Source: Paraburkholderia sp. SOS3 (GTDB taxonomy: Bacteria; Pseudomonadota; Gammaproteobacteria; Burkholderiales; Burkholderiaceae). Taken from it: a stretch of 64,000 nt of DNA. The notes under the pieces are model-generated. The model saw only the letters and a program-made list of their open reading frames with translations. It did not search any database and was not told where the DNA came from. The stretch's first letter is position 1. Each line of letters opens with the position of its first letter. A program made the translations under genes and the position numbers. Location: positions 1,054,001 through 1,118,000 of the forward strand of contig NZ_CP018812.1 of the NCBI RefSeq assembly GCF_001922345.1. Direction: 5' to 3'. Positions 22,339 to 49,774 of the stretch are shown in pieces.

Positions 22339-23355
22339 TTACATCGCGAGGATTTCCCTCACTGCCTGATCGATAAACTTGACGTCGGTAGCATTGGCCG
22401 CGGGGCCACCGGCAAAATGCCCCCAAACCGACTCGATAGGCCGCAGCTCTGCATTGGGCATCTTCGAGACTTCATATGCGCTGTCCTCCGGCGGGAAATA
22501 CAGATCCGTGCGTCCGGGCATCACAATGGCCTTGGCCGTGATGCTGCCCAACGCCCGATCGAAATCCCCCATATATCGCGGATTCGCAGAAATATCGGCG
22601 TTCTGCCAGCTCCACATCATCGACAAGATATTGTTCGCGTCCTTCTTCAGGAAATCGCCTTCCCAGAAGTGGGTAATGAAGTCCTCGAGTGAGCCATATC
22701 CCATTGCTTCGATGTCAAGCCGGTGACGCAGAAATGCCTGCGAAAACCCCCAGCCCGCGAATACACGCGCAGCCGCTCGCATTCCACGCGTCGGCGGTGC
22801 GTCGTAAAAACCGTTCTTGAACTCCGGGTCCAGCATCAACGGCGCCTTCAGCCCCTCGATAAACACAAAGTTGTGCCGCGAGCACCGCGCCGACCCGCAA
22901 AGCGGCAGAATCCGTTGCACCATATCGGGATACATCGCGGCCCAATGGTAGACCTGCATCGCACCCATCGACCAGCCGACGACGAGCCTCAGCGACTCGA
23001 TGCCGAATTTCCCGGTCACAAGGCGGTGCTGCATCGCGACGTTGTCGTATAGCGTGACATGAGGAAAGCGGCCGCGATCATAAGGTGGCGGATTGTTGCT
23101 CGGCGAACTTGATACACCGTTGCCAAACATATTCGGCACAATAATGAAGTATTCCTTTGGATCGAGGCCCATGTGCTCGCCGATCAGCCACTCGTTTTCT
23201 GCGTGAGTGCCGCTATAAAAAGTCGGATAGACGATCGCATTGTCGCGTGCCGCGTTCAGCCGGCCATACGTCTTGTAGCCAAGCTGCATGTCAGGCAGCG
23301 TCGCGCCGGACTGTAGCGTGACGCGGCCAAGATTGAAAGTTTCGAAGTCCGTCAT
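22339..23355 (-). CDS. MetX-family alpha/beta-fold hydrolase or acyltransferase
   Basis: A 338-residue alpha/beta-hydrolase protein of the homoserine O-acetyltransferase (MetX) family. The nucleophile elbow is GWSMGAMQ, the Asp lies in PGRTDLYFP and the His in VWGHFAGG. Classical MetX proteins have GGSMGG, so this is a divergent branch that more likely hydrolyses an amide or ester in this catabolic cluster than makes methionine. The ATG at 23355 is 13 bp downstream of the ABC transporter gene on the same strand. Confidence 0.85.
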   Translation of the reverse strand: MTDFETFNLGRVTLQSGATLPDMQLGYKTYGRLNAARDNAIVYPTFYSGTHAENEWLIGEHMGLDPKEYFIIVPNMFGNGVSSSPSNNPPPYDRGRFPHVTLYDNVAMQHRLVTGKFGIESLRLVVGWSMGAMQVYHWAAMYPDMVQRILPLCGSARCSRHNFVFIEGLKAPLMLDPEFKNGFYDAPPTRGMRAAARVFAGWGFSQAFLRHRLDIEAMGYGSLEDFITHFWEGDFLKKDANNILSMMWSWQNADISANPRYMGDFDRALGSITAKAIVMPGRTDLYFPPEDSAYEVSKMPNAELRPIESVWGHFAGGPAANATDVKFIDQAVREILAM

Positions 23356-23368
23356 TTGAGCCTCATCC

Positions 23369-25072
23369 CTAGGTGGCGACGACGTTGAGGAATTTTCGCG
23401 TACGTTCGTGAGTCGGGTTGCCAATGACTTGCTGTGGCGTGCCTTGCTCGATCACTTCGCCGCCGTCCATGAAGACGACACGGTCGGCAACGTCGCGGGC
23501 AAAGCGGATTTCGTGCGTGACCACCACCATCGTCATGCCGGCATGAGCGAGCCCGCGCATCACGCCAAGCACTTCACCGACGAGCTCCGGATCGAGTGCT
23601 GAAGTAGGTTCGTCGAAGAGCATCAACTTCGGCTTGATCGCGAGTGCGCGCGCAATCGCCACGCGCTGCTGCTGTCCGCCGGATAACCGATGCGGCATGG
23701 AGTCCGCATGCGCGGCGAGTCCCACGCTCTTCAACAGATCGCGGCCGAGCGCTTCCGCCTCGGCACGCGGCACATCGTAGACCTGCCGTTGTGCTTCGAC
23801 GATATTGTCCAGCGCACTCAAATGATTGAAGAGATTGAAATGCTGGAACACCATCCCCACACGCGCTTCGGCCCGCGCCCGTGCGAGGTTGTGCACGGGC
23901 CGAACAGCGCCACTGCCGCCCGCTACTTCGCGATAGCCGACATACTGCGAATCGACCTTGATCGTGCCCCAGTCAAGCGGTTCGAGATGGTTGATGAGCT
24001 TGAGCAGCGTGCTTTTGCCGGAGCCGCTCGGGCCGAGAATCACGACCACTTCGCCATGCGCAATCGACAGGTCGACGCCGCGTAAAATCTCCCGTTTGGC
24101 ATACGATTTCCAGACGTTCCTGCACGCGACAAACGGTTCATCGGGATGTCGCGGCGTGCGGCTGTCGGCCGGCAGCAGTGTGCTAATCCATTCGTGATCG
24201 TTCGCCTCCGGCGTTTTGACGGTGCGCGACGAACCGGTTGCAGCATCGGGGGGCTTCGCGTCAGGTGTCGATGCGCGCAGTCCAAGCCATGTGAACGCGA
24301 GTTTCCGGTCGCGCTCGTGATCGAAGATGCCTTCAAGCCATACCTGAAGCAGTGAGATTGCACTCGTCAGGAACAGATAGATGACCGCCGCCGCGCCGAA
24401 CACCGTAAAGAACTTGAAGTTCTGCCCGACAATCTGTTGCGAACGAAACGTGAGCTCGTTGACGAAGATCACGGATGCGATCGACGTCAGCTTCAACATG
24501 CCGATGGTGTCGTTGGCCAGACCCGGAATGACCGCGCGCATCGATTGCGGCAGGATAATGCGGCGCAGCGTCAGCAACGGTCCCATGCCGAGTGCGGCAG
24601 CCGCGGTCGACTGCGAACGGTTCACCGACAGGATCCCGGCACGGAACAGTTCGGCGCTGAACGCCGCCTCGTTCAACGCAAAGCCGATCACTGCAGTCGT
24701 GAATTCGTCGAAGCGCAGACCGATCAGCGGCAACGCGTCGAAGATAAACACGAGTTGCAGCAGTTGCGGTGTGCCGCGCACAAACCAGATATAACCCCAG
24801 GCCGCCGAATTCAGCGCCTTGAACCGCGACAATCGCATCAGCGCGAGGCCGAGGCCGAGCACCAGCCCGATCGACATCGCTATCAACGTGATCTTCACCG
24901 CGATCCATGCGCCGCCGAGCAGAAAAGGCGAACCGACATAACCACCGAGTTCCTTGAAACCGTCGAATACCTGAATCCCGTCGAGACTGGCGGCGATGGC
25001 CGGCTGCCATGCAAGCATGGCGATCGTGCCGAGAATGCCGACGAACGTGTGTTGGATACGTAATGCCTTCAT
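23369..25072 (-). CDS. Polar amino-acid ABC transporter, permease and ATPase fused in one protein
   Basis: A 567-residue fusion. Residues about 1-250 are a HisM/GlnP-type permease with the EAA-like loop (AALGMGPLLTLRRIILPQSMR). After a linker of about 60 residues comes a HisP/GlnQ-type ATPase with Walker A GPSGSGKST, signature LSGGQQQR, Walker B LMLFDEPTSALD and the switch His in VVVTHE. Such a protein would pair two copies, giving two permeases and two ATPases. The partner binding protein is encoded just upstream. The start at 25072 was preferred; in-frame codons upstream are possible. It probably imports an amino-acid-like nitrogen compound. Confidence 0.9.
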   Translation of the reverse strand: MKALRIQHTFVGILGTIAMLAWQPAIAASLDGIQVFDGFKELGGYVGSPFLLGGAWIAVKITLIAMSIGLVLGLGLALMRLSRFKALNSAAWGYIWFVRGTPQLLQLVFIFDALPLIGLRFDEFTTAVIGFALNEAAFSAELFRAGILSVNRSQSTAAAALGMGPLLTLRRIILPQSMRAVIPGLANDTIGMLKLTSIASVIFVNELTFRSQQIVGQNFKFFTVFGAAAVIYLFLTSAISLLQVWLEGIFDHERDRKLAFTWLGLRASTPDAKPPDAATGSSRTVKTPEANDHEWISTLLPADSRTPRHPDEPFVACRNVWKSYAKREILRGVDLSIAHGEVVVILGPSGSGKSTLLKLINHLEPLDWGTIKVDSQYVGYREVAGGSGAVRPVHNLARARAEARVGMVFQHFNLFNHLSALDNIVEAQRQVYDVPRAEAEALGRDLLKSVGLAAHADSMPHRLSGGQQQRVAIARALAIKPKLMLFDEPTSALDPELVGEVLGVMRGLAHAGMTMVVVTHEIRFARDVADRVVFMDGGEVIEQGTPQQVIGNPTHERTRKFLNVVAT

Positions 25073-25131
25073 GTCCAAACCTGATCCATGACGCCGGCCG
25101 GAGAACGACGTCGTGTGCCGCGTGGGCAACG

Positions 25132-25989
25132 TTATTGAGTAAGCAGCGTGGTCGGCATCTCCAGCGACGGATCGACGCCGTACTTCTGGAAAGTCTTTTT
25201 CTGCGTCTGATTCGCCTGCATGATCTTGAGTCCATCGGATACGGCAGCGATCATGTCGGCATTGCCTTTCTTCACGCCCACGCCGATCTTCATGCCGCTC
25301 GTCACCATGAAGCCGCGCATGTAGAGCTGAGGATTCTGTTTTGCCAGACCGTCGACGAGCGCCAGGTCGTACATCATGACGTCGGCTCGATGGCTTGCGA
25401 CGAGGCGCGCGCCCGACGCGATATCGGCCGACGTCATGATCGTCACGTCAGGTTTGTTTTCGGCCTTGCATTTGGCGGCTTGCGCTTGTGCCATCGTCAG
25501 CTCGACTGTGCCGATGCCGGCTGTGACCGTGAGGCCGCACAGTTTGGAGATGTCATCGATCTTCTTGGGATTGCCCGCTGCCACCAGGCCGCCCGTGCCG
25601 GCCTGCATATACGTGACGAAGCTCGTCTCCTTCGCGCGTTCCGGTGTGTAGTACAGCAAGTCCCACATCACGTCGATCTGTCCAGCTCGAAGCGCAGGCA
25701 GCAAACCCGGCCAGCCGGCAGTGAAGAATTCCGTCTTCACGCCGGCGCAGTCGAACACGGCTCGGGCCATGTCCGCATCGGCGCCGATGATTTTGTTGAA
25801 GTCCTTGCTGTCACGAAATGCATACGGCGGCGACTCCGGGTCCACGCCGATCTTGATGGTCTTGCCCGCAAGCGACGGATATTTCTGAGCCACCTTGGAC
25901 GGTTCGCACGATTGCGCGAATGCGCCTTGAGCGAGGAGGAGGCCGGTGAGCGCACATAACAGCAGCTTGAAAATCTTTGGCATGAACAT
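25132..25989 (-). CDS. Family 3 amino-acid ABC transporter substrate-binding protein
   Basis: A 285-residue periplasmic binding protein. Signal peptide MFMPKIFKLLLCALTGLLLA..AFAQ, then the family 3 pattern KIGVDPESPPYAF and a DVMWDLLYYTPERA segment that lines the binding cleft in relatives. Cys residues (SCEPS, FDCAG, LCGL, KCKA) could form disulfides. The ATG at 25989 has GGAA seven bases upstream. It supplies the fused permease-ATPase gene 59 bp downstream. The ligand is unknown. Confidence 0.92.
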   Translation of the reverse strand: MFMPKIFKLLLCALTGLLLAQGAFAQSCEPSKVAQKYPSLAGKTIKIGVDPESPPYAFRDSKDFNKIIGADADMARAVFDCAGVKTEFFTAGWPGLLPALRAGQIDVMWDLLYYTPERAKETSFVTYMQAGTGGLVAAGNPKKIDDISKLCGLTVTAGIGTVELTMAQAQAAKCKAENKPDVTIMTSADIASGARLVASHRADVMMYDLALVDGLAKQNPQLYMRGFMVTSGMKIGVGVKKGNADMIAAVSDGLKIMQANQTQKKTFQKYGVDPSLEMPTTLLTQ

Positions 25990-26059
25990 GGCGATTCCTT
26001 TCGAGGCTGAATGAATTGAACGAGGAAGAGGCGGTAGCACGAAGCGGAGACGCAGCGGT

Positions 26060-26962
26060 CTAGCGGCCAAGAAAGTCCATATGGCTTGCAATCGAACCGG
26101 GCGTGGTGATGCAGATCCGGCCTTCGTTGCGCGCACGGGCAATATGCTCGAGCGCCCTGCGCAAGTGACACAGGCGATGCGGTTGCCCCATCAGGTAGGC
26201 ATGCAAGGCAATGCCCATCACGAGAGGTTGGCGGGCGGATTGCCGCAGCATTTCCTCGAAGTGGTCGATGACCAGATCGGCGAACGACTTTGCGTCCATT
26301 TGACGCGCGAGAATCATGGGGATGTCGTTGACCTCCTCCGGATACGGAATGGCCCACAGCGGCTGACCGTTGCGCGTGAGCAAGCGCGTGGGCTGATCGT
26401 CATGGCACCAGTTGAGCGTGTACTGGTAGCCGGCTTCAGCCACGAGATCGCTCGTGACATGACTCTCCGAGAGCCACGGTGACAACCAGCCAGCCGGCTG
26501 CTGTGCACTCTCGGTTGCGATCCGCTGGCGGCATGCCACGATTAGTGCGCGTTCGTCGTCTTCGGACAACGTACCTTGCCGTTCCGAGTTCGTATGGCCA
26601 TGCGCGACCAGTTCATCGCCGCGCTGAGCGAACGCGGCGACGAGTTCAGGGCAGTGATCGTAGAGCGCCGTATTGATGATGGCCGCGGCTGGTAGCGCCA
26701 GTTCATCGAAGAGATCAAGACAGCGCCATGCGCCGACACGCAGCGCGTACTCACGCCACGCGTGATTGAGCACGTCGGGTTCGGGCATCACCGGACCGAT
26801 CGTCGGGCCCAGTCCCTCGCCAAACGAAAAGTGCTCGATGTTGAAGCCGATATAGACCGCTAGCCGGGATCCGTCAGGCCAGCGATAGACCGGGCGGTCG
26901 TTGATCGGCGAATATCGAAAGCGCCCGTGGCCGGGTACCGCGCGGTGTGCGGGAGAGTCCAT
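26060..26962 (-). CDS. Polysaccharide deacetylase-family hydrolase (PuuE-like)
   Basis: A 300-residue cytoplasmic protein of the PuuE (metal-independent allantoinase)/cyclic-imide branch of the NodB superfamily. Telling features are the N-terminal RYSPINDRPVYRWPDGSRLAVYIGFNIEHF, HGHTNSERQ in place of the HxxxH metal pair, and the segment GWLSPWLSES. Loss of the second metal His matches the PuuE type, which works without the usual metal pair. It likely cleaves a cyclic or linear amide of the compound imported by the neighbouring ABC system. It is paralogous to, but distant from, the protein at 20939-21820. Confidence 0.85.
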   Translation of the reverse strand: MDSPAHRAVPGHGRFRYSPINDRPVYRWPDGSRLAVYIGFNIEHFSFGEGLGPTIGPVMPEPDVLNHAWREYALRVGAWRCLDLFDELALPAAAIINTALYDHCPELVAAFAQRGDELVAHGHTNSERQGTLSEDDERALIVACRQRIATESAQQPAGWLSPWLSESHVTSDLVAEAGYQYTLNWCHDDQPTRLLTRNGQPLWAIPYPEEVNDIPMILARQMDAKSFADLVIDHFEEMLRQSARQPLVMGIALHAYLMGQPHRLCHLRRALEHIARARNEGRICITTPGSIASHMDFLGR

Positions 26963-27089
26963 GGTCCAGTCAAGTCCTGTCGAACGGCGCGTGCGCCTGT
27001 GTTCAAGTCAGAACCATGGTAAGGAAATCAAAATAGCGGCATCGGACTTGCAGCGAACAAACTCTTGTCCGCATGCGCATTGAATCTGG

Positions 27090-29483
27090 TCACTCGCGAC
27101 TCGAGTTCTTGAAAAGTGCCTTACGGATAATGGCGTGCACACCCCAGTTGCCATCCACGACCTGCGTCACACCGAAATCGATCGCGACCGAGATAAGGGA
27201 GATCGCTTCGTCTTCTGAAAGTCCCTTGGTGGTCATCAGAAAGCGCCGCGTCTTGATGAACGCGTCGCGCATCGCAAGATCAAGCGTGGACTTTTCGTAC
27301 ACAGCGCTTTGCGCGCTGGTGCCGAACTCGGCCAGATAGTTTGGATGACTGAAACCGTGAAGAACCCATTCCTCGGCGGTTTCGACTAATGGATATGTAA
27401 GGTCCGAAAACTCCTGTTTGCCAAGCGTCTCTTTCTTGTGAAGCACCAGCTGGAAGTCGCCGGTGAGGGAACACTCGATTGCGGTGCCGCACAATTCCGA
27501 GTCTCCTTGCGATGCATGCGGGTCCCCAATGGAGAGCAGCGCGCCGGCTACCCCTACGGGCAAGAACACGCTTGCACCGCGCGTGACGCGCCAGTTGTCG
27601 AGATTGCCGCCGAACGCGGACGGCGGAATCGAATCGATCAGACCATCCTGTTGCGGAGCGACGGTGACTACGCCAAAGTGTGGACGCACCGGAATCTGGA
27701 CGTCTTTCAGGATGTCGTGGTTCTCGACGACGGTCGAATGATCGACGGGCACGCCGGGATAGTCGATCGTCGGATGCATCACGCCAAAAGGATCGCGCTG
27801 AGGTGTCCAGCGGAAGTTATAGACGGCGCGCGCACAGGCGCGTTCGCCTGCGGTGGCGTCGGTGTCGAGCTCATAGATGGTGACGACCTCGCGCGGTTTC
27901 GGCTCGGTCAACAGTTCGCGATAGTGGAAACCCCACCAGGCAGCGGCATTGCTGCCGAACGCGCGGCCAGCGAACTTGGGATTGGCGCAACGGCGCGGGT
28001 GAATGTCGAGGATGCGGATTTCCAGCACGTCGCCGGGTTCGGCACCGCGCACGGCGATGGGTCCCGTACAGATGTGCACGCCGAAGCCTTCTCCTGCGCC
28101 GCGTCCGTAGATGGACGCGTCCATCGGGCCCGCTCCGCGCCGGTTCACATTCTTGCGGTTGGCGGTCCAGTGGAACACGCTTTCGGCGCCAGGGTCACCC
28201 TGCACCATACGCTCCCAATCGTCAGCCGCGTGCTGCGTGAGCGTTTCGATCGTCACCTTGTCGCCGCTGTCGACTTCGAGCACCGGCTTGAGATCGTGGC
28301 TGAAGTAGCCCCAGTGAATCGTATTGGCCGTTGCGCGCAGAAGATGATGGCGCGGCTTGCCGGACGTGCGCGGCGGTGGGGCGGAGGATGCGTCAGGCGG
28401 CTCAACGAAGCCGGCCCCGGCCATGTCTGCGACTTGATGAACTGCATCCTGCGCGGCGAGTTGCGCGTGCGCGAGCAAGCTCCCGGCGTTGACCGGTAAT
28501 CCGCGCGAAATTCGCTGCACGAGATGGCGCGCCAGTTCAAGCCCTCCTTCGTGCCGGAAAGTGCGCGGCGACGCGCCATATTGTTCACGAAACGCGCGGC
28601 TGAAATACGCGGAATCGTTGAAACCCCAGCGAAAGCAGACGTCGGCAATCGAAACCTTTTCATACAGCGGATTGGCCAGATCCGCGCGGCAGCGCTCCAG
28701 TCTGCGTGAGCGCAGGTAAGTAGAGAAGTTCTGCCCAACCGTCTCAAACAGCTTTTGCAGATAGCGCGGCGAGACGCGTTCTTCTTTTGCTATCGATGCC
28801 AGTCCGAGATCGGGGTTAGCGAGACTGCTCTCGATGGTCCGGCATACGCGCGAAAAGAGCGAGGCCTGAGAGGGCGTGAGGCCACTGAAGCCACTGTTCT
28901 TGTGGTGACCGGCGAGACTCGCGATCAGAAACTCCGCAAGCGCGAGTTCGAGAGGCCGCAAGTCATCGAGTGACAACGTCTCCATGCTTTCAGCGATCGA
29001 GCGCAAAAAGCCCGAGAACACATGACCGATGCCGGCCTCGCCTGGCAAACGGCCTGCATGGAGCGAGAACGGCGTTAGAAGGCGTGCGTTGATGGCAGAG
29101 CGGGGCACGCGAATCGCGAATGCGCGGAAGTCCGAAGTGAAGGACAGATGAGCTTCCTCGCGCGACGACGCATAGACAATATCGCCGATAGCAACTTGCG
29201 TACGCACGCCGTTGGCGACGAGTGTCGCGCCACCGTCCAGATGCAGCACGATGGCGAGTGTGTCGGCGCCGTCGACCTTGAACTCGATGGTTTGCGCAAA
29301 CGCGGCCAGCACGATCAGCTCAAAGTCGTTGTTCGACTTGCGCGAGCTGATGGTTCCATGCAAGTGCTGCGCGCTTGCCTGACGTGCGCCGCAGCGCAGG
29401 CCAACCGCTTCGAGCGCCTCGCTCCATGCTCGCATGCGATCCACTTCGGCGTACGACTCGGTAGTGAAACGCAGTAACTCCAA
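27090..29483 (-). CDS. Fusion of AraC-type transcription regulator and acetamidase/formamidase
   Basis: One uninterrupted 797-residue reading frame. Residues 1-190 resemble the ligand-binding half of AraC regulators of the AraC-binding-like type. Residues 211-311 are a full AraC HTH pair (GLASIAKEERVSPRYLQKLFE and VSIADVCFRWGFNDSAYFSRAF). A 60-residue linker follows, and residues about 378-797 are a complete FmdA/AmdA acetamidase/formamidase with GDVLEIRILDIHP, PHFGVVTVAP and GDPHASQGDSELCG. The enzyme half would hydrolyse formamide or a related amide to acid plus ammonia. The start is probably TTG at 29483 with GGGAG six bases upstream. The fusion suggests a regulator that senses through, or is linked to, its own enzyme; a frameshift artefact is unlikely because the frame is continuous. 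Confidence 0.92.
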   Translation of the reverse strand: MELLRFTTESYAEVDRMRAWSEALEAVGLRCGARQASAQHLHGTISSRKSNNDFELIVLAAFAQTIEFKVDGADTLAIVLHLDGGATLVANGVRTQVAIGDIVYASSREEAHLSFTSDFRAFAIRVPRSAINARLLTPFSLHAGRLPGEAGIGHVFSGFLRSIAESMETLSLDDLRPLELALAEFLIASLAGHHKNSGFSGLTPSQASLFSRVCRTIESSLANPDLGLASIAKEERVSPRYLQKLFETVGQNFSTYLRSRRLERCRADLANPLYEKVSIADVCFRWGFNDSAYFSRAFREQYGASPRTFRHEGGLELARHLVQRISRGLPVNAGSLLAHAQLAAQDAVHQVADMAGAGFVEPPDASSAPPPRTSGKPRHHLLRATANTIHWGYFSHDLKPVLEVDSGDKVTIETLTQHAADDWERMVQGDPGAESVFHWTANRKNVNRRGAGPMDASIYGRGAGEGFGVHICTGPIAVRGAEPGDVLEIRILDIHPRRCANPKFAGRAFGSNAAAWWGFHYRELLTEPKPREVVTIYELDTDATAGERACARAVYNFRWTPQRDPFGVMHPTIDYPGVPVDHSTVVENHDILKDVQIPVRPHFGVVTVAPQQDGLIDSIPPSAFGGNLDNWRVTRGASVFLPVGVAGALLSIGDPHASQGDSELCGTAIECSLTGDFQLVLHKKETLGKQEFSDLTYPLVETAEEWVLHGFSHPNYLAEFGTSAQSAVYEKSTLDLAMRDAFIKTRRFLMTTKGLSEDEAISLISVAIDFGVTQVVDGNWGVHAIIRKALFKNSSRE

Positions 29484-29793
29484 CGTGGGCTCCCTGACCC
29501 TGACGAACGTCAGCCGAACGACTGAAAAGCAATGTCCGCGCCATCGAGGAACACGTCATGGTCGCCGCCTCGTGTCCGACAGGACAGGGCGACCCGTTGC
29601 CGCGCGGCACCTGCTCGTGCGTAAACGCACTGCGGCAGTGCACGGCGCGCACGCTTTATGCACGATGCGTTTTCTTCGGAGGAGATATGTTTCGTGGGCA
29701 TATTGCAGTGAGTGCGTTGACAGTGCGGGTCGCAACGCAACCTGCGCTATCATGCAGCCCGCCACGCGACGTCGGTCCACACGCTAAAACAAC
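29484..29793. other. Divergent intergenic region between the AraC-formamidase and TauE genes
   Basis: 310 bp with no credible gene. It must hold two divergent promoters. I could not pick out a convincing -35/-10 pair or operator by eye; short open frames here have no ribosome binding site. Confidence 0.5.
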
Positions 29794-31613: not shown

Positions 31614-32372
31614 GTGAAGAAGAGGCTCCAAGGCAAGCGGATCGTCATCACCGGAGCGGTCGACAATATCGGCAAGGCGGCGGTCGCCGCGTTCGTCGAG
31701 GAAGGCGCGAAAGTGGTGATCGGCGACATCGACGCCGCGCGCGGCGAGAAAGTCGCTGCGGAATTCGGCCCGAACGTCAGATTTATCCGGGTCGATGTCA
31801 CCGACGACGCCAGCGTCAGACAACTGATCGACGACGGAGCTCACTGGCTGGGCGGGCTGGACGTGCTCGCACAGAACGCAGGCGCGATGACCTCCGGCGC
31901 GATCACCGAGCTCGATCCGTCGACCTTCGACAGGCTCTTCGCCGTCAACGTGCGCGGCCTTTTCCTCGGGGCCAAGTACGCCGTGCCGCATCTGCGGCGT
32001 GCGGGCGGCGGCTCGATCATCAACACCGCTTCGCTCGCCGGCAAGCGCGGCCAGCCCGGTCTGACGGTCTATTCGGCATCGAAGGGCGCGGTCATTGCAT
32101 TCGGCACGACGCTCGCGCTCGAACTCGCGCAAGACCGCATCCGCGTAAATACGATCTGCCCGGGCTGGATCGATACGACGTTCAACGATCCGATTGTCGG
32201 CTACATGGGCGGCCGCGGCGTGCAGGACGAAAAAGTCGCTGCGGCAGTTCCGCTTGGCCGTCAGGGACTGCCGTCGGAGGTCGCGCCGCTCTTCGTGTTC
32301 CTCGCGTCGGATGAATCGTCGTACGTCAATGCACAGGCGCTGCTTGTCGACGGCGGCACTTTCAACGCCTGA
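31614..32372 (+). CDS. SDR-family dehydrogenase, probably sugar or sugar-alcohol 1-dehydrogenase
   Basis: A 252-residue short-chain dehydrogenase. The cofactor motif is TGAVDNIGKAA, the acidic residue GDID after strand 2 favours NAD, and the catalytic pair is in YSASKGA. I chose the GTG at 31614 because GGAGGAG lies just upstream. It is the first gene of a likely operon with a ribose-type importer, a lactonase-like amidohydrolase and a sugar-acid dehydratase. Its probable job is oxidation of an aldose to its lactone. The exact sugar cannot be told. Confidence 0.85.
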   Translation: MKKRLQGKRIVITGAVDNIGKAAVAAFVEEGAKVVIGDIDAARGEKVAAEFGPNVRFIRVDVTDDASVRQLIDDGAHWLGGLDVLAQNAGAMTSGAITELDPSTFDRLFAVNVRGLFLGAKYAVPHLRRAGGGSIINTASLAGKRGQPGLTVYSASKGAVIAFGTTLALELAQDRIRVNTICPGWIDTTFNDPIVGYMGGRGVQDEKVAAAVPLGRQGLPSEVAPLFVFLASDESSYVNAQALLVDGGTFNA

Positions 32373-32463
32373 ATCTGCTTCTTCGCCCCCGAACGCGGCT
32401 GCTGCCGCGCTCACTCCAATAATCACATCGACCAATCCTCATCAGAGGAATCAGGAGACATTC

Positions 32464-33420
32464 ATGGTTCGCAATCTGTCGCTCGTCGCGCTGTCAGCGG
32501 TGCTGTGCGCGGCGTCGATCACGCACGCGTCGGCCGCCGAAAAAAAGCAGTTGTATTTCGTCGCCAACGGCCCGGTCGATTTCTGGAAACTCGCCGAAGC
32601 CGGCATGAAGAAGGCGCAAGCCGAACTGCCGGGCTATACGATGGAAATGAAGTATCCGGAACAGGCGTCGGCGGCAGTGCAGAACCGGCTGCTCGACGAT
32701 CTCGTTGCGAACGGCGCTTCGGGCATCATCCTCAGCGCAGTCGACCCGAAAACCCAGACGACCGAACTCGACAAGGTCGCGGGCCAAAGCCTGCTCGTCA
32801 CCACCGACAGCGATGCGCCCGACAGCAAGCGCGCGTTCTATCTCGGCTCGAGCAACCTGCAGGCAGGCCACCAGGCCGCGGACATCCTGAAGAAGGCGAT
32901 GCCCAAAGGCGGCGTCTGCGTCGCATTCGCCGCCACGCCCGGATCGGACAACGCGGTGCAGCGTCTGCAGGGCATGCGCGAAGGCCTGCAAGGCACGAAC
33001 ATCAAGATCGACAGCATTCGCTCGGACGAGATGGATCAGGCGCGCGCGCAGCGCAACGTCGCCGACATTCTCGCCGCGCGCAGCGACGTGAATTGCATGA
33101 TCGGCGTGTTCGCGTACAACACGCCGCAGATCTATCTCGCGCTTCAGCAGGCCGGCAAGGTGGGCAAGGTGACGGTGGTCGGCTTCGACAACGATCAGGG
33201 CACGCTTGTCGGGATCAAGGCGGGCGCGGTCGCGGGCACAGTCGTGCAGCAGCCGTTCCAGTGGGGCTATCTCGGCATGAAGTACATGGCCAGGTACCTG
33301 CAAGGCGACAAGTCGTTCATCCCCGCGAATCACGAGATCATCGTGCCGACGCAGATCATCGACAAGTCGAACGTCGACGGATTCATGGCGCAGGTCAAGA
33401 CCTGGCTCGGCAAGAAGTGA
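32464..33420 (+). CDS. Sugar ABC transporter substrate-binding protein (RbsB type)
   Basis: A 318-residue periplasmic binding protein of the LacI-like sugar-binding family (ribose/galactose group). Signal peptide MVRNLSLVALSAVLCAASI..ASA; mature part begins EKKQLYFVANGPVDFWKLAEAG. The typical sub-domain contacts NGASGIILSAVDP and VVGFDNDQGTLVGIKAG are visible. It is followed after 31 bp by the ATPase and then the permease, giving a complete importer. Confidence 0.93.
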   Translation: MVRNLSLVALSAVLCAASITHASAAEKKQLYFVANGPVDFWKLAEAGMKKAQAELPGYTMEMKYPEQASAAVQNRLLDDLVANGASGIILSAVDPKTQTTELDKVAGQSLLVTTDSDAPDSKRAFYLGSSNLQAGHQAADILKKAMPKGGVCVAFAATPGSDNAVQRLQGMREGLQGTNIKIDSIRSDEMDQARAQRNVADILAARSDVNCMIGVFAYNTPQIYLALQQAGKVGKVTVVGFDNDQGTLVGIKAGAVAGTVVQQPFQWGYLGMKYMARYLQGDKSFIPANHEIIVPTQIIDKSNVDGFMAQVKTWLGKK

Positions 33421-33451
33421 CACTGGGCACCGCTGACTCCCGGAGCCGCAT

Positions 33452-34957
33452 ATGAATGCCCCGCTGCTTTCGCTCTCGAGCATCACGAAGGACTATGGCT
33501 CGGTACGCGCGCTGAAAGGCGTGTCGTTTTCCATCGACGCGGGCGAAGTGGTCGGGCTGATCGGCGAGAACGGTGCGGGCAAATCGACGCTCATGAAAGT
33601 ACTTGGCGGTGTGATCGAGCCGACCTCGGGTTCGATCGCGATCGAGGGGCGCGAGCACGGTGCGCTTACCGTTCAGCAGTCGCTCGGCGCCGGTATCGCG
33701 TTCGTGCATCAGGAACTGAACCTGTTCGAGAACCTCGATGTCGCCGCAAACGTCTTCATCGGCCGCGAGCCGCGTCGTGGCGGACTGCTGAAGCTGGTCG
33801 ACAACCGCGCGCTGCACGCGCGCGTGAAGCCGCTGCTGCAGCGGCTCGGCTGCGATTTTCACGCGGACACGCCGGTCGCGGAACTGTCGATAGCGCAATG
33901 CCAGATGCTCGAAATCGTGAAGGCGCTGTCGCTCGACGCAAAGCTCATCATCATGGACGAGCCCACTTCGAGCCTGACGACCGCCGAGACGAACCGTCTG
34001 CTAGGCGTTGTAGACGGTCTGAAGCAGAGCGGTGTGGCGATCATCTTTATTACGCATCGGCTAAGCGAGATCGAGCGTTGCGCGGACCGTGTGATCGGTT
34101 TGCGCGATGGCTCGATGGTCGGCTCGCTCACGCGCGAGGAGATCGGCCGTGACGCGATGATCAGGCTGATGATCGGCCGCAGCCTGAAAACGCTCTATGA
34201 ACCGCCGGCGTCGCCGCCGGGCCAAGCCGTACTGGAGCTCGACGGATTTGCCACGCAAACGTGGCGAGCGAGCGAGGTGACGCTTGGACTGCGCGGTGGC
34301 GAGATCCTCGGCATGGCGGGGTTGATTGGCGCGGGCCGTACGGAACTCGCACGCGCGATCTTCGGAATCGACAAGCCGGAGCGCGGCTCGATGCGACTGG
34401 ACGGCGAGCCGCTCGCGATCGGCGCGCCGCGCGACGCAATCGTGCGCGGCATCTTTCTCGTACCGGAAGATCGCAAGCGATCGGGGCTGGTGCTCGACGA
34501 TTCGATCGCGCAAAACGTATCGCTTGCGAGCCTCGATGCGGTGTCGCGAGGCGGATTGATCGACGTGAAGGCCGAGCGGCGCCTTGCCGAGGAGCAACGG
34601 CGCGCGCTGCGCATCAAGACGCCTGACGTCGATACGCCGGCCGCGTCGCTGTCGGGCGGCAATCAGCAGAAAGTGGTGCTGGCCAAGTGGCTGTGCATGC
34701 GCCCGCGTGTCGTGATCTTCGACGAACCGACCCGCGGCGTCGACGCCGGCGCGAAAAGCGAAATCTATGCGCTGATGCGCGAGCTCGCCGACCGCGGCGT
34801 TGCGATCCTGATGATTTCGAGCGACATGGAAGAAGTCATCGGCGTCAGCGACCGGGTCGCGGTCATGCACGAAGGCGCGATCAGGGGCATTCTCGATCGC
34901 GACCAGTTGAGCGAGGCGAACATCATGCATCTCGCGATCGGCAACGTTCTACATTGA
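33452..34957 (+). CDS. Sugar ABC transporter ATPase (RbsA type, two ATPase domains)
   Basis: A 501-residue protein with two fused nucleotide-binding domains. The first has Walker A GENGAGKST, a degenerate signature (ELSIAQCQ) and Walker B LIIMDEPTSSL. The second has an altered Walker A region (GLIGAGRTE), signature LSGGNQQK and Walker B VVIFDEPTRGVD. This asymmetry is normal for the RbsA/MglA family. It energises uptake with the adjacent binding protein and permease. Confidence 0.95.
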   Translation: MNAPLLSLSSITKDYGSVRALKGVSFSIDAGEVVGLIGENGAGKSTLMKVLGGVIEPTSGSIAIEGREHGALTVQQSLGAGIAFVHQELNLFENLDVAANVFIGREPRRGGLLKLVDNRALHARVKPLLQRLGCDFHADTPVAELSIAQCQMLEIVKALSLDAKLIIMDEPTSSLTTAETNRLLGVVDGLKQSGVAIIFITHRLSEIERCADRVIGLRDGSMVGSLTREEIGRDAMIRLMIGRSLKTLYEPPASPPGQAVLELDGFATQTWRASEVTLGLRGGEILGMAGLIGAGRTELARAIFGIDKPERGSMRLDGEPLAIGAPRDAIVRGIFLVPEDRKRSGLVLDDSIAQNVSLASLDAVSRGGLIDVKAERRLAEEQRRALRIKTPDVDTPAASLSGGNQQKVVLAKWLCMRPRVVIFDEPTRGVDAGAKSEIYALMRELADRGVAILMISSDMEEVIGVSDRVAVMHEGAIRGILDRDQLSEANIMHLAIGNVLH

Positions 34958-34975
34958 AGCGAAAGGCGCACCGTT

Positions 34976-35965
34976 ATGCTGAAAAAAGATCTGGGCCTGC
35001 TCGTGGTGATCCTCATAGTGGGCGCCGTGGTCGCCGCGATCAATCCGCGTTTCATTTCACCCGCGAACCTGTCGAACACGGCAAATCTGATCGGGCTGTT
35101 CGGTCTGTTCTCGATCGGCGAGGGGTTTGTCATCATTACCGGCGGTATCGACCTGTCGATCGGCGCGGTCTTCGCGCTGCTCGGGGTAATCTACATCACA
35201 CTGCTTTCGTCGGTCGGCATGAACTGGCTTGCAGCAACCGGTCTCATGCTGGCGGCAGGCGTCGCGATGGGACTCGTGCACGGCCTGCTCGTTACACGCC
35301 TCAAAATGCAGCCGTTCGTCGTTACCTTGTGCGGACTGCTCATCTATCGCGGCGTCGCGCGCTACTACACCGACGACGGCAACGCGGGATTCGACTTCGG
35401 GCAGACCTTCCCGACGCTCGAGTGGCTCACCACCGGCCACGTCGCGGGCGTGCCGAACAGTTTCATCGCGTTCGTGATAGTCGCGATCGTGATGGGCGTC
35501 GTGCTGCACAAGTCCGTGTTCGGACGACATCTTTTCGCGGTCGGCAAGAACGAGGAAGCGGCGCGCTATTCCGGCATCAACACCCGTTTCGTGATCATAT
35601 CCGCGTACGTGATCTGTTCGGTGCTCGCGGCTATCTCGTCGGTGTATTTCGCGATGTACACGCGTTCGGTCGCGCCTGCTTCGCACGGAACGTTCTATGA
35701 GCTGTACGGTATCGCGGCCGCGGTGCTCGGCGGCTGCTCGCTGCGCGGCGGCGAAGGATCGGTATTCGGCATTGCGTTGGGTGCCGTGTTGCTGCAAGTG
35801 CTGCAAAACCTCGTCAATCTGCTCGGCATTCCGTCATCGCTCAACTTCGCGGTGATGGGTACCGTGATCGTGATCGGCGTGCTGTTCGACGGACAGTTGC
35901 AGGCGCTGCGCAAACGTCGCGCGGCGAGCATCGCTCACGCACAGCGCGTCGTCGCAACGAAATAG
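34976..35965 (+). CDS. Sugar ABC transporter permease (RbsC type)
   Basis: A 329-residue inner-membrane protein with about 9-10 spans of the ribose-type permease family. Typical motifs are GEGFVIITGGIDLSIGAVFAL, PFVVTLCGLLIYRG and the cytoplasmic coupling loop GRHLFAVGKNEEAARYSGI. It lies 18 bp after the ATPase gene and completes the importer. Its C-terminus is basic and cytoplasmic. Confidence 0.95.
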   Translation: MLKKDLGLLVVILIVGAVVAAINPRFISPANLSNTANLIGLFGLFSIGEGFVIITGGIDLSIGAVFALLGVIYITLLSSVGMNWLAATGLMLAAGVAMGLVHGLLVTRLKMQPFVVTLCGLLIYRGVARYYTDDGNAGFDFGQTFPTLEWLTTGHVAGVPNSFIAFVIVAIVMGVVLHKSVFGRHLFAVGKNEEAARYSGINTRFVIISAYVICSVLAAISSVYFAMYTRSVAPASHGTFYELYGIAAAVLGGCSLRGGEGSVFGIALGAVLLQVLQNLVNLLGIPSSLNFAVMGTVIVIGVLFDGQLQALRKRRAASIAHAQRVVATK

Positions 35966-35989
35966 CGGACCATTGCCGCGAGAGCCATC

Positions 35990-36886
35990 ATGTCACACCC
36001 TGCGAACCACGACGCGCCGCTCTGCGCGCCACCGCCGCCGGCGCAAACACGCTCTGGCGAGTTTGCAATGCCCGCTTATGCGGTCGATGCGCACGCCCAT
36101 GTGATTGGTATGCCGCCGCGCCATCCATGGATGCCGGACCGCGCCTATACGCCGTACGAGGCTAGCGCACAAGCGTACCTGCGCATGCTCGACGAGGTCG
36201 GCTGCGCGTTCGGCGTGCTCGTGCAGGTCAGCGTACATGGCCAGGACAATACGCTGATGCTCGACACGTTGCGCGCGCATCGCGACCGGCTGCGCGGTGT
36301 CGTCGTGCCGTCGTTGTCGCTTCCCGACGCACGGTATCAGGCCATGAACGACGCGGGCACGGTCGGCATGCGTATCAATGCCATGCATGCAGGCGGCGGC
36401 ATTTCATTCGACCAGCTCGACGAATACGACGCGCTGGCATGCGACTGGGGCTGGCATCTGCAAATGCTCGTCGATGCGCGTCAGCTGGTCGAACTCGCGC
36501 CACGGCTGTCGAAACTTCGCTCGACGCTCGTGATCGATCATATGGGACACGTGCCTGCGGCAAGCGGCGTGCAAACACCGGGTTTCACCACGCTCGTCGA
36601 CATGGTGCGCGACGGCGCGTGGGTCAAGCTATCGGGTGCCTATCGCATGAGCGAAGCGGAGCCGCCATATCGCGATACGGCCGCTTTCGCGCAACGGCTC
36701 GTCGACGCCGCGCGCGAGCGCTGCGTGTGGGGCTCGGACTGGCCGCATGTCGCGCATTGGCGCACGATGCCCACCGTCGCGCAGTTGCTCGATACGCTTG
36801 CGCTGTGGGTGCCCGACGCTCCGACTCGCGACGCGATCCTCACGACCAACGCGCATGCGCTCTATGGTTTTTCGCCGCGCGGCTGA
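35990..36886 (+). CDS. Amidohydrolase-family (amidohydrolase_2) protein, probable sugar lactonase
   Basis: A 298-residue TIM-barrel metal hydrolase of the amidohydrolase_2 group that includes 2-pyrone-4,6-dicarboxylate lactonase and L-fucono/rhamnono lactonases. The N-terminal metal motif is VDAHAHV, a later His is in LVIDHMGH, and the C-terminal signature is VWGSDWPH. It may start at 35990 or at the ATG at 36068, right before the metal motif. Placed between importer and dehydratase, it most likely opens the sugar lactone to the aldonic acid. Confidence 0.85.
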   Translation: MSHPANHDAPLCAPPPPAQTRSGEFAMPAYAVDAHAHVIGMPPRHPWMPDRAYTPYEASAQAYLRMLDEVGCAFGVLVQVSVHGQDNTLMLDTLRAHRDRLRGVVVPSLSLPDARYQAMNDAGTVGMRINAMHAGGGISFDQLDEYDALACDWGWHLQMLVDARQLVELAPRLSKLRSTLVIDHMGHVPAASGVQTPGFTTLVDMVRDGAWVKLSGAYRMSEAEPPYRDTAAFAQRLVDAARERCVWGSDWPHVAHWRTMPTVAQLLDTLALWVPDAPTRDAILTTNAHALYGFSPRG

Positions 36887-49030: not shown

Positions 49031-49774
49031 TCAAGTCTGTCCCGAACGCACATCGACGAGCCGGTCGCGGATAGCGCGCCAGATGCGCGGCACGACCCGC
49101 AGGCCGGCGGTCATGCCGGGATCGTAGTAATGCACGATCAATGTGCGGCGTTCGCCTCGCTCGACATGAAGGTTCGCGTGCCGCGTGACAAAGCCGTTGA
49201 ACGCGTAGACGTTGCCCGGCACGCACGCGATGCGGTCGCAGCGTTGCCGCGAGAGATCGCGGCGCGTCTGTGCACGGCGCATCGCGAGCGGCAAGCGCCG
49301 CAGCGCGATCATCCAGGCCTTCGCCATCACGTTGGTCGCGGCCGATAGTTGCTGGCGCTGCCGGCGATAGACGATCAGATCGCCGTTCTCCGCGGCGTCG
49401 TGCGCTGAACGCAGCGGAATCAGCAGCGTCAGGATATGTGAATCGAAGTGCCGCAGATGGCTCTGGGCGGGCAGCGTCCGGTTTATGCAACGCAATACAC
49501 AAAGCGATTCTCCATCGACTTTTAGCCCCTTCTGTGCGGCCCAGCGCTGCGAGTCGACGCGGGCCTGCTGTTCGACGCGCAGGAATTCGCCGTGCTGCCG
49601 GAGCAGTTCGACGACGCGCGCGGTCGTCTGCGTCGCGCGCCGGCCGTCGGCCGGTTGCCACGTGTCGCGCGTTTCGTCGATGGTCGCGTTGATCTCGTCG
49701 AGCACGGTCTGCGGCACCACGTTCTCGTACAGGCGCACGCGAGGCGGTGCGATATCCGTGTCGTCCTCAAGCAT
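49031..49774 (-). CDS. Putative 2-oxoglutarate/Fe(II) oxygenase-like protein
   Basis: A 247-residue protein without signal peptide. The middle and end show the order expected for a jelly-roll Fe(II)/2OG enzyme: LRHFDSHILTLLIPLR (His-x-Asp), ENGDLIVY, then GNVYAFNGFVTRHANLHVERGERRTLIVHYYDP, which could give the distal His and the 2OG-binding Arg. I infer the fold from motif order, not from a recognised family. The ATG at 49774 has GGAG upstream. It lies at the edge of the polysaccharide locus, so a sugar or precursor could be the substrate. Confidence 0.55.
   Translation of the reverse strand: MLEDDTDIAPPRVRLYENVVPQTVLDEINATIDETRDTWQPADGRRATQTTARVVELLRQHGEFLRVEQQARVDSQRWAAQKGLKVDGESLCVLRCINRTLPAQSHLRHFDSHILTLLIPLRSAHDAAENGDLIVYRRQRQQLSAATNVMAKAWMIALRRLPLAMRRAQTRRDLSRQRCDRIACVPGNVYAFNGFVTRHANLHVERGERRTLIVHYYDPGMTAGLRVVPRIWRAIRDRLVDVRSGQT

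What the first reader, a model, noticed from the sequence alone, without database searches (positions are those of the whole stretch)
27090..29483. One polypeptide combining an AraC regulator with an acetamidase/formamidase
A continuous 797-codon frame carries a complete AraC ligand-like half and HTH pair, then a complete FmdA/AmdA enzyme domain. A DNA-binding regulator fused to the amide hydrolase could couple substrate hydrolysis directly to transcription control. The divergent TauE and the nearby deacetylase-family and ABC genes are candidate targets.
Basis: partly seen in the sequence, partly recalled or inferred. Interest (0 to 1): 0.8.

Follow-up and report, generated by a model that had tools for sequence, protein, structure and literature searches.

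The report
AraC activator fused to an amidase
A soil bacterium makes one protein that is both a gene switch and an intact-looking amide-cutting enzyme; the same fusion is kept by many distant relatives next to amide-uptake genes, so it probably lets the cell tune those genes directly to the compound they handle.

Summary
Window 27090-29483 (-) is one 797-codon frame (TTG start): AraC_binding_2, AraC HTH pair, a low-confidence linker and a complete acetamidase/formamidase-family domain. It is no local accident: near-full-length fusions occur in Beta-, Alpha- and Gammaproteobacteria. The fused enzyme halves form one clade, so one origin is likely; unfused AraC relatives nest inside the fused clade, implying later loss of the enzyme half. 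Family-wide motif residues are kept, except one Asp that is Asn in 36 of 107 fusion rows, not in the window. Most likely the protein activates a nitrogen-scavenging operon and uses the enzyme half as substrate sensor or inducer-destroying brake; that coupling is inferred. Databases already annotate the fusion; my searches found no paper on it. New variant of a known kind.

The parts
27090..29483 (-). AraC-FmdA_AmdA fusion gene, 797 codons, TTG start
28869..29483 (-). FeaR-like AraC_binding_2 region, residues 1-205
   Evidence: Pfam 73-189; dN/dS about 0.17-0.28 against the nearest orthologs
28551..28793 (-). AraC-type double helix-turn-helix, residues 231-311
   Evidence: HTH_18 74.5 bits
27090..28355 (-). 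Enzyme half, residues 377-797, with GGNxD (625-629) and GDxHxxQGDxE (653-663)
   Evidence: PDB 3b9t match; motif counts
29528..29544 (-). sigma54-type promoter ATGGCGCGGACATTGCT, 61 bases upstream of the start codon
29654..29721 (-). Decayed 3' remnant of the short standalone amidase that stands here in orthologs; ends approximate
   Evidence: alignment to ortholog upstream regions; blastn pieces over remnant and intergenic region with E 3e-7 to 2e-17 in L009, L021, L023, L025, L036
27044..27067 (-). Operator-like element CAAGAGTTTGTTCGC-TG-CAAGTCC between fusion and deacetylase
   Evidence: scores only -2.9 on the full 29-column model; supported by box 1, exact geometry to the -10 and identity of box 1 in 8 orthologs
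27016..27021 (-). -10 like TACCAT, 46 bases from the start of box 1, as in other loci
26060..26962 (-). Polysaccharide-deacetylase fold gene, weakly PuuE-like; first gene behind the element
25132..26142 (-). Family 3 solute-binding protein of an ABC transporter
   Evidence: cluster present in 42 of 87 fusion loci
23369..25129 (-). ABC permease and ATPase on one polypeptide
   Evidence: a cluster gene of 450 aa or more within 5 genes in 44 of 87 fusion loci
22339..23424 (-). alpha/beta hydrolase, end of the probable operon
   Evidence: cluster in 9 of 87 loci

Best explanation
The protein is an AraC/FeaR-type transcription activator that carries a second, enzyme-derived module. Step 1 (sequence evidence): its gene is read from a sigma54-type promoter, so it is probably made under nitrogen limitation. 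Step 2 (comparative evidence): its HTH half binds an operator-like element, CAAG-N3-TTGTGCGC-N7-CAAG, placed about 46 bases upstream of a -10 box, and switches on uptake and amide-hydrolysis genes; in the window this is deacetylase-SBP-permease/ATPase-hydrolase. It is a trigger-enzyme-like arrangement on one polypeptide.
For: One frame with both halves. The halves co-vary: Mantel r 0.73, 0 of 2000 permutations as high, 23 fusions. The 23 fused enzyme halves are one side of a branch, 100/99 support. Both halves under purifying selection: against the nearest orthologs enzyme dN about 0.03-0.04 with dS 0.6-0.8, HTH dN about 0.05, AraC_N dN about 0.1. Family-wide polar residues kept: N627, D629, D654, H656, D661, E663, E670 in 107 of 107 fusion rows, Q659 in 106. 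Of 87 fusion loci 50 hold a gene of the ABC cluster (44 with one of 450 aa or more within 5 genes), 42 the SBP, 70 another acetamidase-family gene, 78 one of these. Operator model trained on 20 loci: 32 of 61 held-out loci score 12 or more, 13 of 18 alphaproteobacterial; 3 of 305 Markov shuffles and 0 of 17 (shorter) control loci do. TANNNT lies 45-47 bases from the start of box 1 in 33 of 44 held-out hits (28 of 33 loci); other triplets of offsets give 0-3. Of 75 sites listed, training loci included, the gene behind is SBP 24, standalone amidase 12, LigB 9, TauD 6, MFS 4, TonB 3; none in 8, unclustered in 4. sigma54 match of 11 or more of 13 in 37 of 102 fusion upstreams against 11 of 1154 other genes.
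Against: No binding, activity or expression was measured. The window's own site scores only -2.9 on the full 29-column model and was accepted on box 1 plus the -10 distance (15 hits as good in 200 shuffled windows); the best full-model scores in the window are 4.1 at 49768 (+), unrelated, and 2.1 at 27089 (-), in the same intergenic region, all under the threshold of 12. 29 of 61 held-out loci score under 12; those under 10 include the Cupriavidus and Pandoraea loci. Unfused AraC descendants exist and one, L177, has two operator-like sites, so the enzyme half looks dispensable for regulation there. D777 is N in 36 of 107 fusion rows. The fused enzyme half is less conserved than the standalone partner of the same loci in 103 of 120 locus pairs. 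Close relatives inflate the counts for sigma54, operator and residues; a few genes are counted twice.
Confidence: 0.6

Rival explanations
1. The fused half is simply a working cytoplasmic amidase tethered to its regulator for co-expression; no allosteric or feedback coupling.
For: Motif residues intact; the window lost the neighbouring short amidase, leaving the fused half the only acetamidase-family domain of its locus; linker with pLDDT below 50 at 321-340 and 353-374, 8 to 85 residues long in 109 fusions.
Against: 70 of 87 fusion loci already hold a separate acetamidase-family gene nearby, so one more copy at regulator dosage seems pointless; D777N in a third of fusion rows.
Confidence: 0.2
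2. The enzyme half is a catalytically dead ligand-binding sensor, as in BzdR, whose shikimate-kinase-like domain lost activity.
For: D777 to N in 36 of 107 and P642 to R, K or T in 40 of 107 fusion rows; less constrained than the standalone partner; BzdR precedent (PMC3602430, abstract and passages).
Against: 71 of 107 rows, the window among them, keep D777, and the GGNxD and GDxHxxQGDxE polar residues are kept in all 107 but for one Q659 change. A binding site kept this close to the family consensus is unusual for a dead enzyme.
Confidence: 0.15
3. The enzyme half is an evolutionary passenger; regulation is by the AraC half alone.
For: Enzyme half apparently lost in a lineage of unfused regulators that keep a short amidase beside them.
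Against: The enzyme half is the most conserved part of the protein: median identity 0.87 against 0.58 for AraC_N and 0.74 for HTH over 32-33 comparisons. Only one clade of losses was seen.
Confidence: 0.05

Closest known systems
PdeL (YahA) of E. coli, a trigger phosphodiesterase
   Same: HTH DNA-binding domain and an active enzyme on one polypeptide; binding and breakdown of the substrate interfere with activation (PMC5052742, passages)
   Different: LuxR-type HTH and EAL domain acting on a second messenger; here AraC/FeaR-type HTH with its own AraC_N domain and a metabolic amidase fold
Ada of E. coli
   Same: AraC-type HTH joined to an enzyme domain in one regulator (weak hit NF011964, 22 bits; function recalled)
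   Different: Ada is a suicide DNA methyltransferase activated by its own methylation; no catabolic operon (recalled)
BzdR of Azoarcus
   Same: Catabolic regulator whose effector domain is an enzyme fold joined to a DNA-binding domain (PMC3602430, abstract and passages)
   Different: XRE-type HTH; the enzyme fold lost its activity, here the family motif is kept
Tat-type acetamidase/formamidase-like proteins, PDB 3b9t
   Same: Enzyme half aligns over residues 371-792 at about 62% identity
   Different: 3b9t is named a twin-arginine signal protein; the fusion begins with the AraC part and is expected in the cytoplasm. No measured activity of 3b9t came up in my calls
FeaR, AraC-family activator
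   Same: AraC half matches the FeaR model over residues 15-311 (121 bits)
   Different: Below FeaR's 199-bit cut-off; the 303-position FeaR model has no enzyme half

Membership tests
AraC/XylS regulators | double HTH domain above curated cut-off | tested here: met
   HTH_18 74.5 bits against 33.6
AraC/XylS regulators | sequence-specific DNA binding and activation | not testable with these tools
   only a conserved operator-like element was found
FeaR equivalog | score above the NCBIfam cut-off | tested here: not met
   121.4 bits against 199
FmdA_AmdA (PF03069) | Pfam match above gathering score | tested here: met
   104.8 bits against 27
FmdA_AmdA (PF03069) | polar residues invariant in the 114 unfused rows examined | tested here: met
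   window keeps N627, D629, D654, H656, Q659, D661, E663, E670, D777
formamidase FmdA equivalog (NF045496) | score above the NCBIfam cut-off | tested here: not met
   64 bits against 500
formamidase FmdA equivalog (NF045496) | hydrolysis of formamide | not testable with these tools
   no assay
trigger enzymes | DNA-binding domain and an enzyme with intact motif in one protein | tested here: met
trigger enzymes | enzymatic activity | not testable with these tools
   no assay
trigger enzymes | substrate-dependent control of transcription | not testable with these tools
   inferred only
sigma54 promoters | GG and GC at -24/-12 spacing with consensus TGGCAC-N5-TTGC (consensus recalled) | tested here: met
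   window 11 of 13 scored positions; conserved in orthologs; use by sigma54 not tested

The most novel reading that the evidence does not exclude
A self-resetting activator: a catalytically active amidase half destroys the inducer that keeps its own AraC half on, making a one-protein pulse generator for amide scavenging that is kept across three proteobacterial classes and wired to nitrogen status through sigma54, with one lineage reverting to an ordinary AraC regulator by shedding the enzyme.
Probability: 0.3. Interest if true: 0.8.

Novelty: new variant of a known kind. Interest (0 to 1): 0.6.

Why it matters
It would be an AraC-type trigger enzyme with a candidate operator, a promoter class and natural unfused controls all in hand. 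That makes an old question directly testable: what a catabolic enzyme gains by being fused to the regulator of its own pathway, and why the fusion can be undone. It also warns that automatic names ('acetamidase/formamidase family protein', 'AraC family transcriptional regulator') each hide half of the protein.

Tried and rejected
TauE as target: no operator-like score in 29484-29793 and no TauE homolog among called neighbours of the other fusion loci. Two separate proteins: only 29 of 109 fusions have an in-frame Met in the linker, so a conserved internal ATG start is unlikely; GTG and TTG starts were not examined. Chance or assembly fusion: rejected by 79 of 80 loci by matched range and by whole genomes: 36 of 249 in the family sample, the window's own counted, 8 of 398 in the phylum sample, 2 of 250 in the order sample; so patchy, not universal. 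Seven of the 36 matches and one of the 8 list one stop inside the matched stretch; for the two of these that I read as ORFs (L105, L133) the frame is open through both halves, the other six were not checked. An inverted repeat GTGCG...CGCAC upstream of some orthologs (seen) was not pursued. A 486-aa neighbour without Pfam match turned out to resemble 5-nitroanthranilate aminohydrolase. A first enzyme tree that held two very distant, long rows needed two changes for the fusion label; those rows were left out. In one search two reference ORFs were wrongly chosen; one search repeats the count with the right ones, but the P642 breakdown is taken, whose fusion rows are the same 107. Literature: searches gave no paper on this fusion; the library holds open-licence PubMed Central papers only. 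PMC10781810, PMC3602430, PMC5052742 and PMC5748707 were seen as passages only (the last had no hit for the terms asked).

Full report
What is there. Window 27090-29483 on the minus strand is one open frame of 797 codons starting with TTG. Pfam finds AraC_binding_2, HTH_18 and FmdA_AmdA, each above its cut-off. The predicted structure (mean pLDDT 79.6, pTM 0.56) has AraC and enzyme parts joined by a linker with pLDDT below 50 at 321-340 and 353-374. The best solved match is 3b9t for the enzyme half; the best full-length AraC-like match is CuxR, 5nla. Loops at 451-467, 517-520 and 657-665, the last within the conserved motif, are also below 50, so the model says nothing on catalysis.

How widespread. 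A protein search gave 3123 relatives below E 1e-3 among the 7996 candidates scored; the 120 listed all carry both an AraC-type HTH and PF03069 in the precomputed Pfam column, and JGI names many 'acetamidase/formamidase/AraC-like DNA-binding protein'. The best 80 of 435 genome loci include Burkholderiaceae, Comamonadaceae, Thiomonas, Sphingomonadales, Parvibaculum, Alteromonadaceae, Nevskia and Pseudoxanthomonas; 79 of 80 match over a range of at least 95% of the query. In a plasmid collection 16 of 1695 matching records cover 80% or more, including Rhizobium, Sinorhizobium and Novosphingobium at 45-53% identity. The host genome has a second fusion at G000:C2:420616-423036 beside a 413-aa standalone enzyme.

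Origin and loss. In a tree of 40 enzyme rows the 23 fused halves are one side of a branch (100/99, and in 100% of 200 bootstrap trees), apart from Tat-type, 413-aa and short standalone forms; an earlier tree that held two very distant long rows needed two changes. In a tree of 45 AraC rows, seven unfused regulators sit inside the fused group (98/90); holding all fusions together is rejected with p-AU 0.024. The simplest reading is one fusion and at least one later loss of the enzyme half. Four of these regulators (L121-L123, L177) come from genomes with no full-length match in the same searches, which scored only the best few candidates per genome; each stands next to a short amidase, L121-L123 with Rieske and LigB genes near, L177 with a Rieske gene. 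Three others stand in loci that also hold a fusion (L088, L091, L094).

Constraint. Over 31-33 comparisons with near fusions (a few of them copies of one gene, one the broken copy), median amino-acid identity to the window is 0.87 for the enzyme half, 0.74 for HTH, 0.58 for AraC_N and 0.53 for the linker. Against that, the standalone 413-aa type partner is more conserved than the fused half in 103 of 120 locus pairs (medians 0.84 and 0.74). Polar residues invariant in 114 unfused rows are kept in 106 or 107 of 107 fusion rows, except D777 (71 of 107; N in 36). The window's gene and the host's second fusion are each in those 107 rows twice. The window keeps all of these residues. The N777 fusions are mostly in Cupriavidus, Pandoraea and sphingomonad loci, and 28 of the 36 have a short-type amidase in the stretch read. 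Which residues are catalytic I could not test; no structure paper came up.

Neighbours. Of 87 loci with a gene hitting both halves (L070 broken, L084 cut), 50 hold a gene of the ABC cluster (single-linkage, so some may be other ABC ATPases; 44 have one of 450 aa or more within 5 genes), 42 a family 3 binding protein, 70 another acetamidase-family gene and 78 at least one of these; the 413-aa gene of L018 was missed by my gene caller, so 70 is a lower bound. Other recurrent partners are RidA (19 loci), LigB, Rieske, luciferase-like (RutA-like), isochorismatase (RutB-like), MFS and TauD genes; several smaller clusters were not annotated. One Caballeronia locus also holds nitrile hydratase genes. 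The theme is uptake and breakdown of amides or N-containing rings; the exact substrate is unknown.

The window locus. The close orthologs aligned have a short amidase just upstream of the fusion (L009, L021-L025, L032, L036, L061). In the window only a 3' scrap of it remains, about 29654-29721, and TauE follows. No short-type amidase was among the acetamidase-family hits of the host genome.

Two cis elements. First, a sigma54-type site (window 29528-29544) is conserved while its surroundings drift: 37 of 102 fusion upstreams match 11 or more of 13 consensus positions, against 11 of 1154 other genes and 17 of 2040 shuffles. Many of these loci are close kin, but the sites occur in Paraburkholderia, Caballeronia, Variovorax, Ramlibacter and Thiomonas loci and in an unnamed family (f48) that shares only the phylum with the window. 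65 of the 102 do not reach this match. Second, aligning SBP upstream regions of nine Burkholderiaceae-type loci showed a conserved block, and its first box stands between fusion and deacetylase in the window and, identical, in 8 orthologs. A 29-column model from 20 loci scored 12 or more in 32 of 61 held-out loci (13 of 18 alpha-, 14 of 31 beta-, 3 of 5 gammaproteobacterial, 2 of 7 unclassed), in 3 of 305 Markov shuffles and in 0 of 17 control loci, which are shorter. A TANNNT lies 45-47 bases from the start of box 1 in 33 of 44 held-out hits, in 28 of 33 loci; other triplets of offsets between 33 and 59 give 0 to 3. This fits an activator site ending near the -35 region (inference). The genes behind the sites are mostly binding proteins, standalone amidases, LigB, TauD, MFS and TonB genes. 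For the window the full model scores only -2.9, because the second box is shifted; box 1 plus the exact 46-base distance to TACCAT is the only such hit in 64 kb at the threshold used, and 200 shuffled windows gave 15 as good. The window site is therefore probable, not shown.

Mechanism. Shown by sequence: one polypeptide, intact motif, shared operator-like element, sigma54-type promoter. Inferred: made under nitrogen limitation, binds the element, activates the uptake operon. Inferred with less support: the enzyme half senses or removes the inducer. PdeL of E. coli, an HTH-enzyme fusion in which substrate binding and degradation interfere with activation, shows that such a device can work (PMC5052742, passages). 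BzdR shows the other route, an enzyme fold turned pure sensor (PMC3602430, passages).

Verdict. The fusion is genuine, old and conserved, known to annotation pipelines but not, in the open library I searched, described in print. It is a new variant of a known kind.

Noticed in passing
29654-29721: Scrap of a lost short amidase gene directly upstream of the fusion; orthologs have the whole gene.
   Followed up: yes
23369-25129: ABC permease and ATPase are themselves fused in one polypeptide; such a fused form recurs beside AraC-FmdA fusions in other genera.
   Followed up: partly
L121-L123, L177: Unfused AraC regulators that fall inside the fused clade and stand beside a short amidase: natural enzyme-less controls.
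   Followed up: yes
L070:1606-3809 and L125: A broken second fusion copy in Burkholderia turbans LMG 29316, still followed by deacetylase, SBP, ABC and hydrolase ORFs.
   Followed up: no
L086:8417-9877 and related genes in 11 other loci: Gene upstream of sphingomonad fusions without Pfam match, related to 5-nitroanthranilate aminohydrolase (PDB 5k8p, 265 bits).
   Followed up: partly
L010:1278-3022: Nitrile hydratase genes a few kilobases from a Caballeronia fusion, hinting at a nitrile-to-amide route.
   Followed up: no
32194-36883: Separate cluster of periplasmic binding protein, ABC ATPase, permease and amidohydrolase; not linked to the fusion by any evidence here.
   Followed up: no
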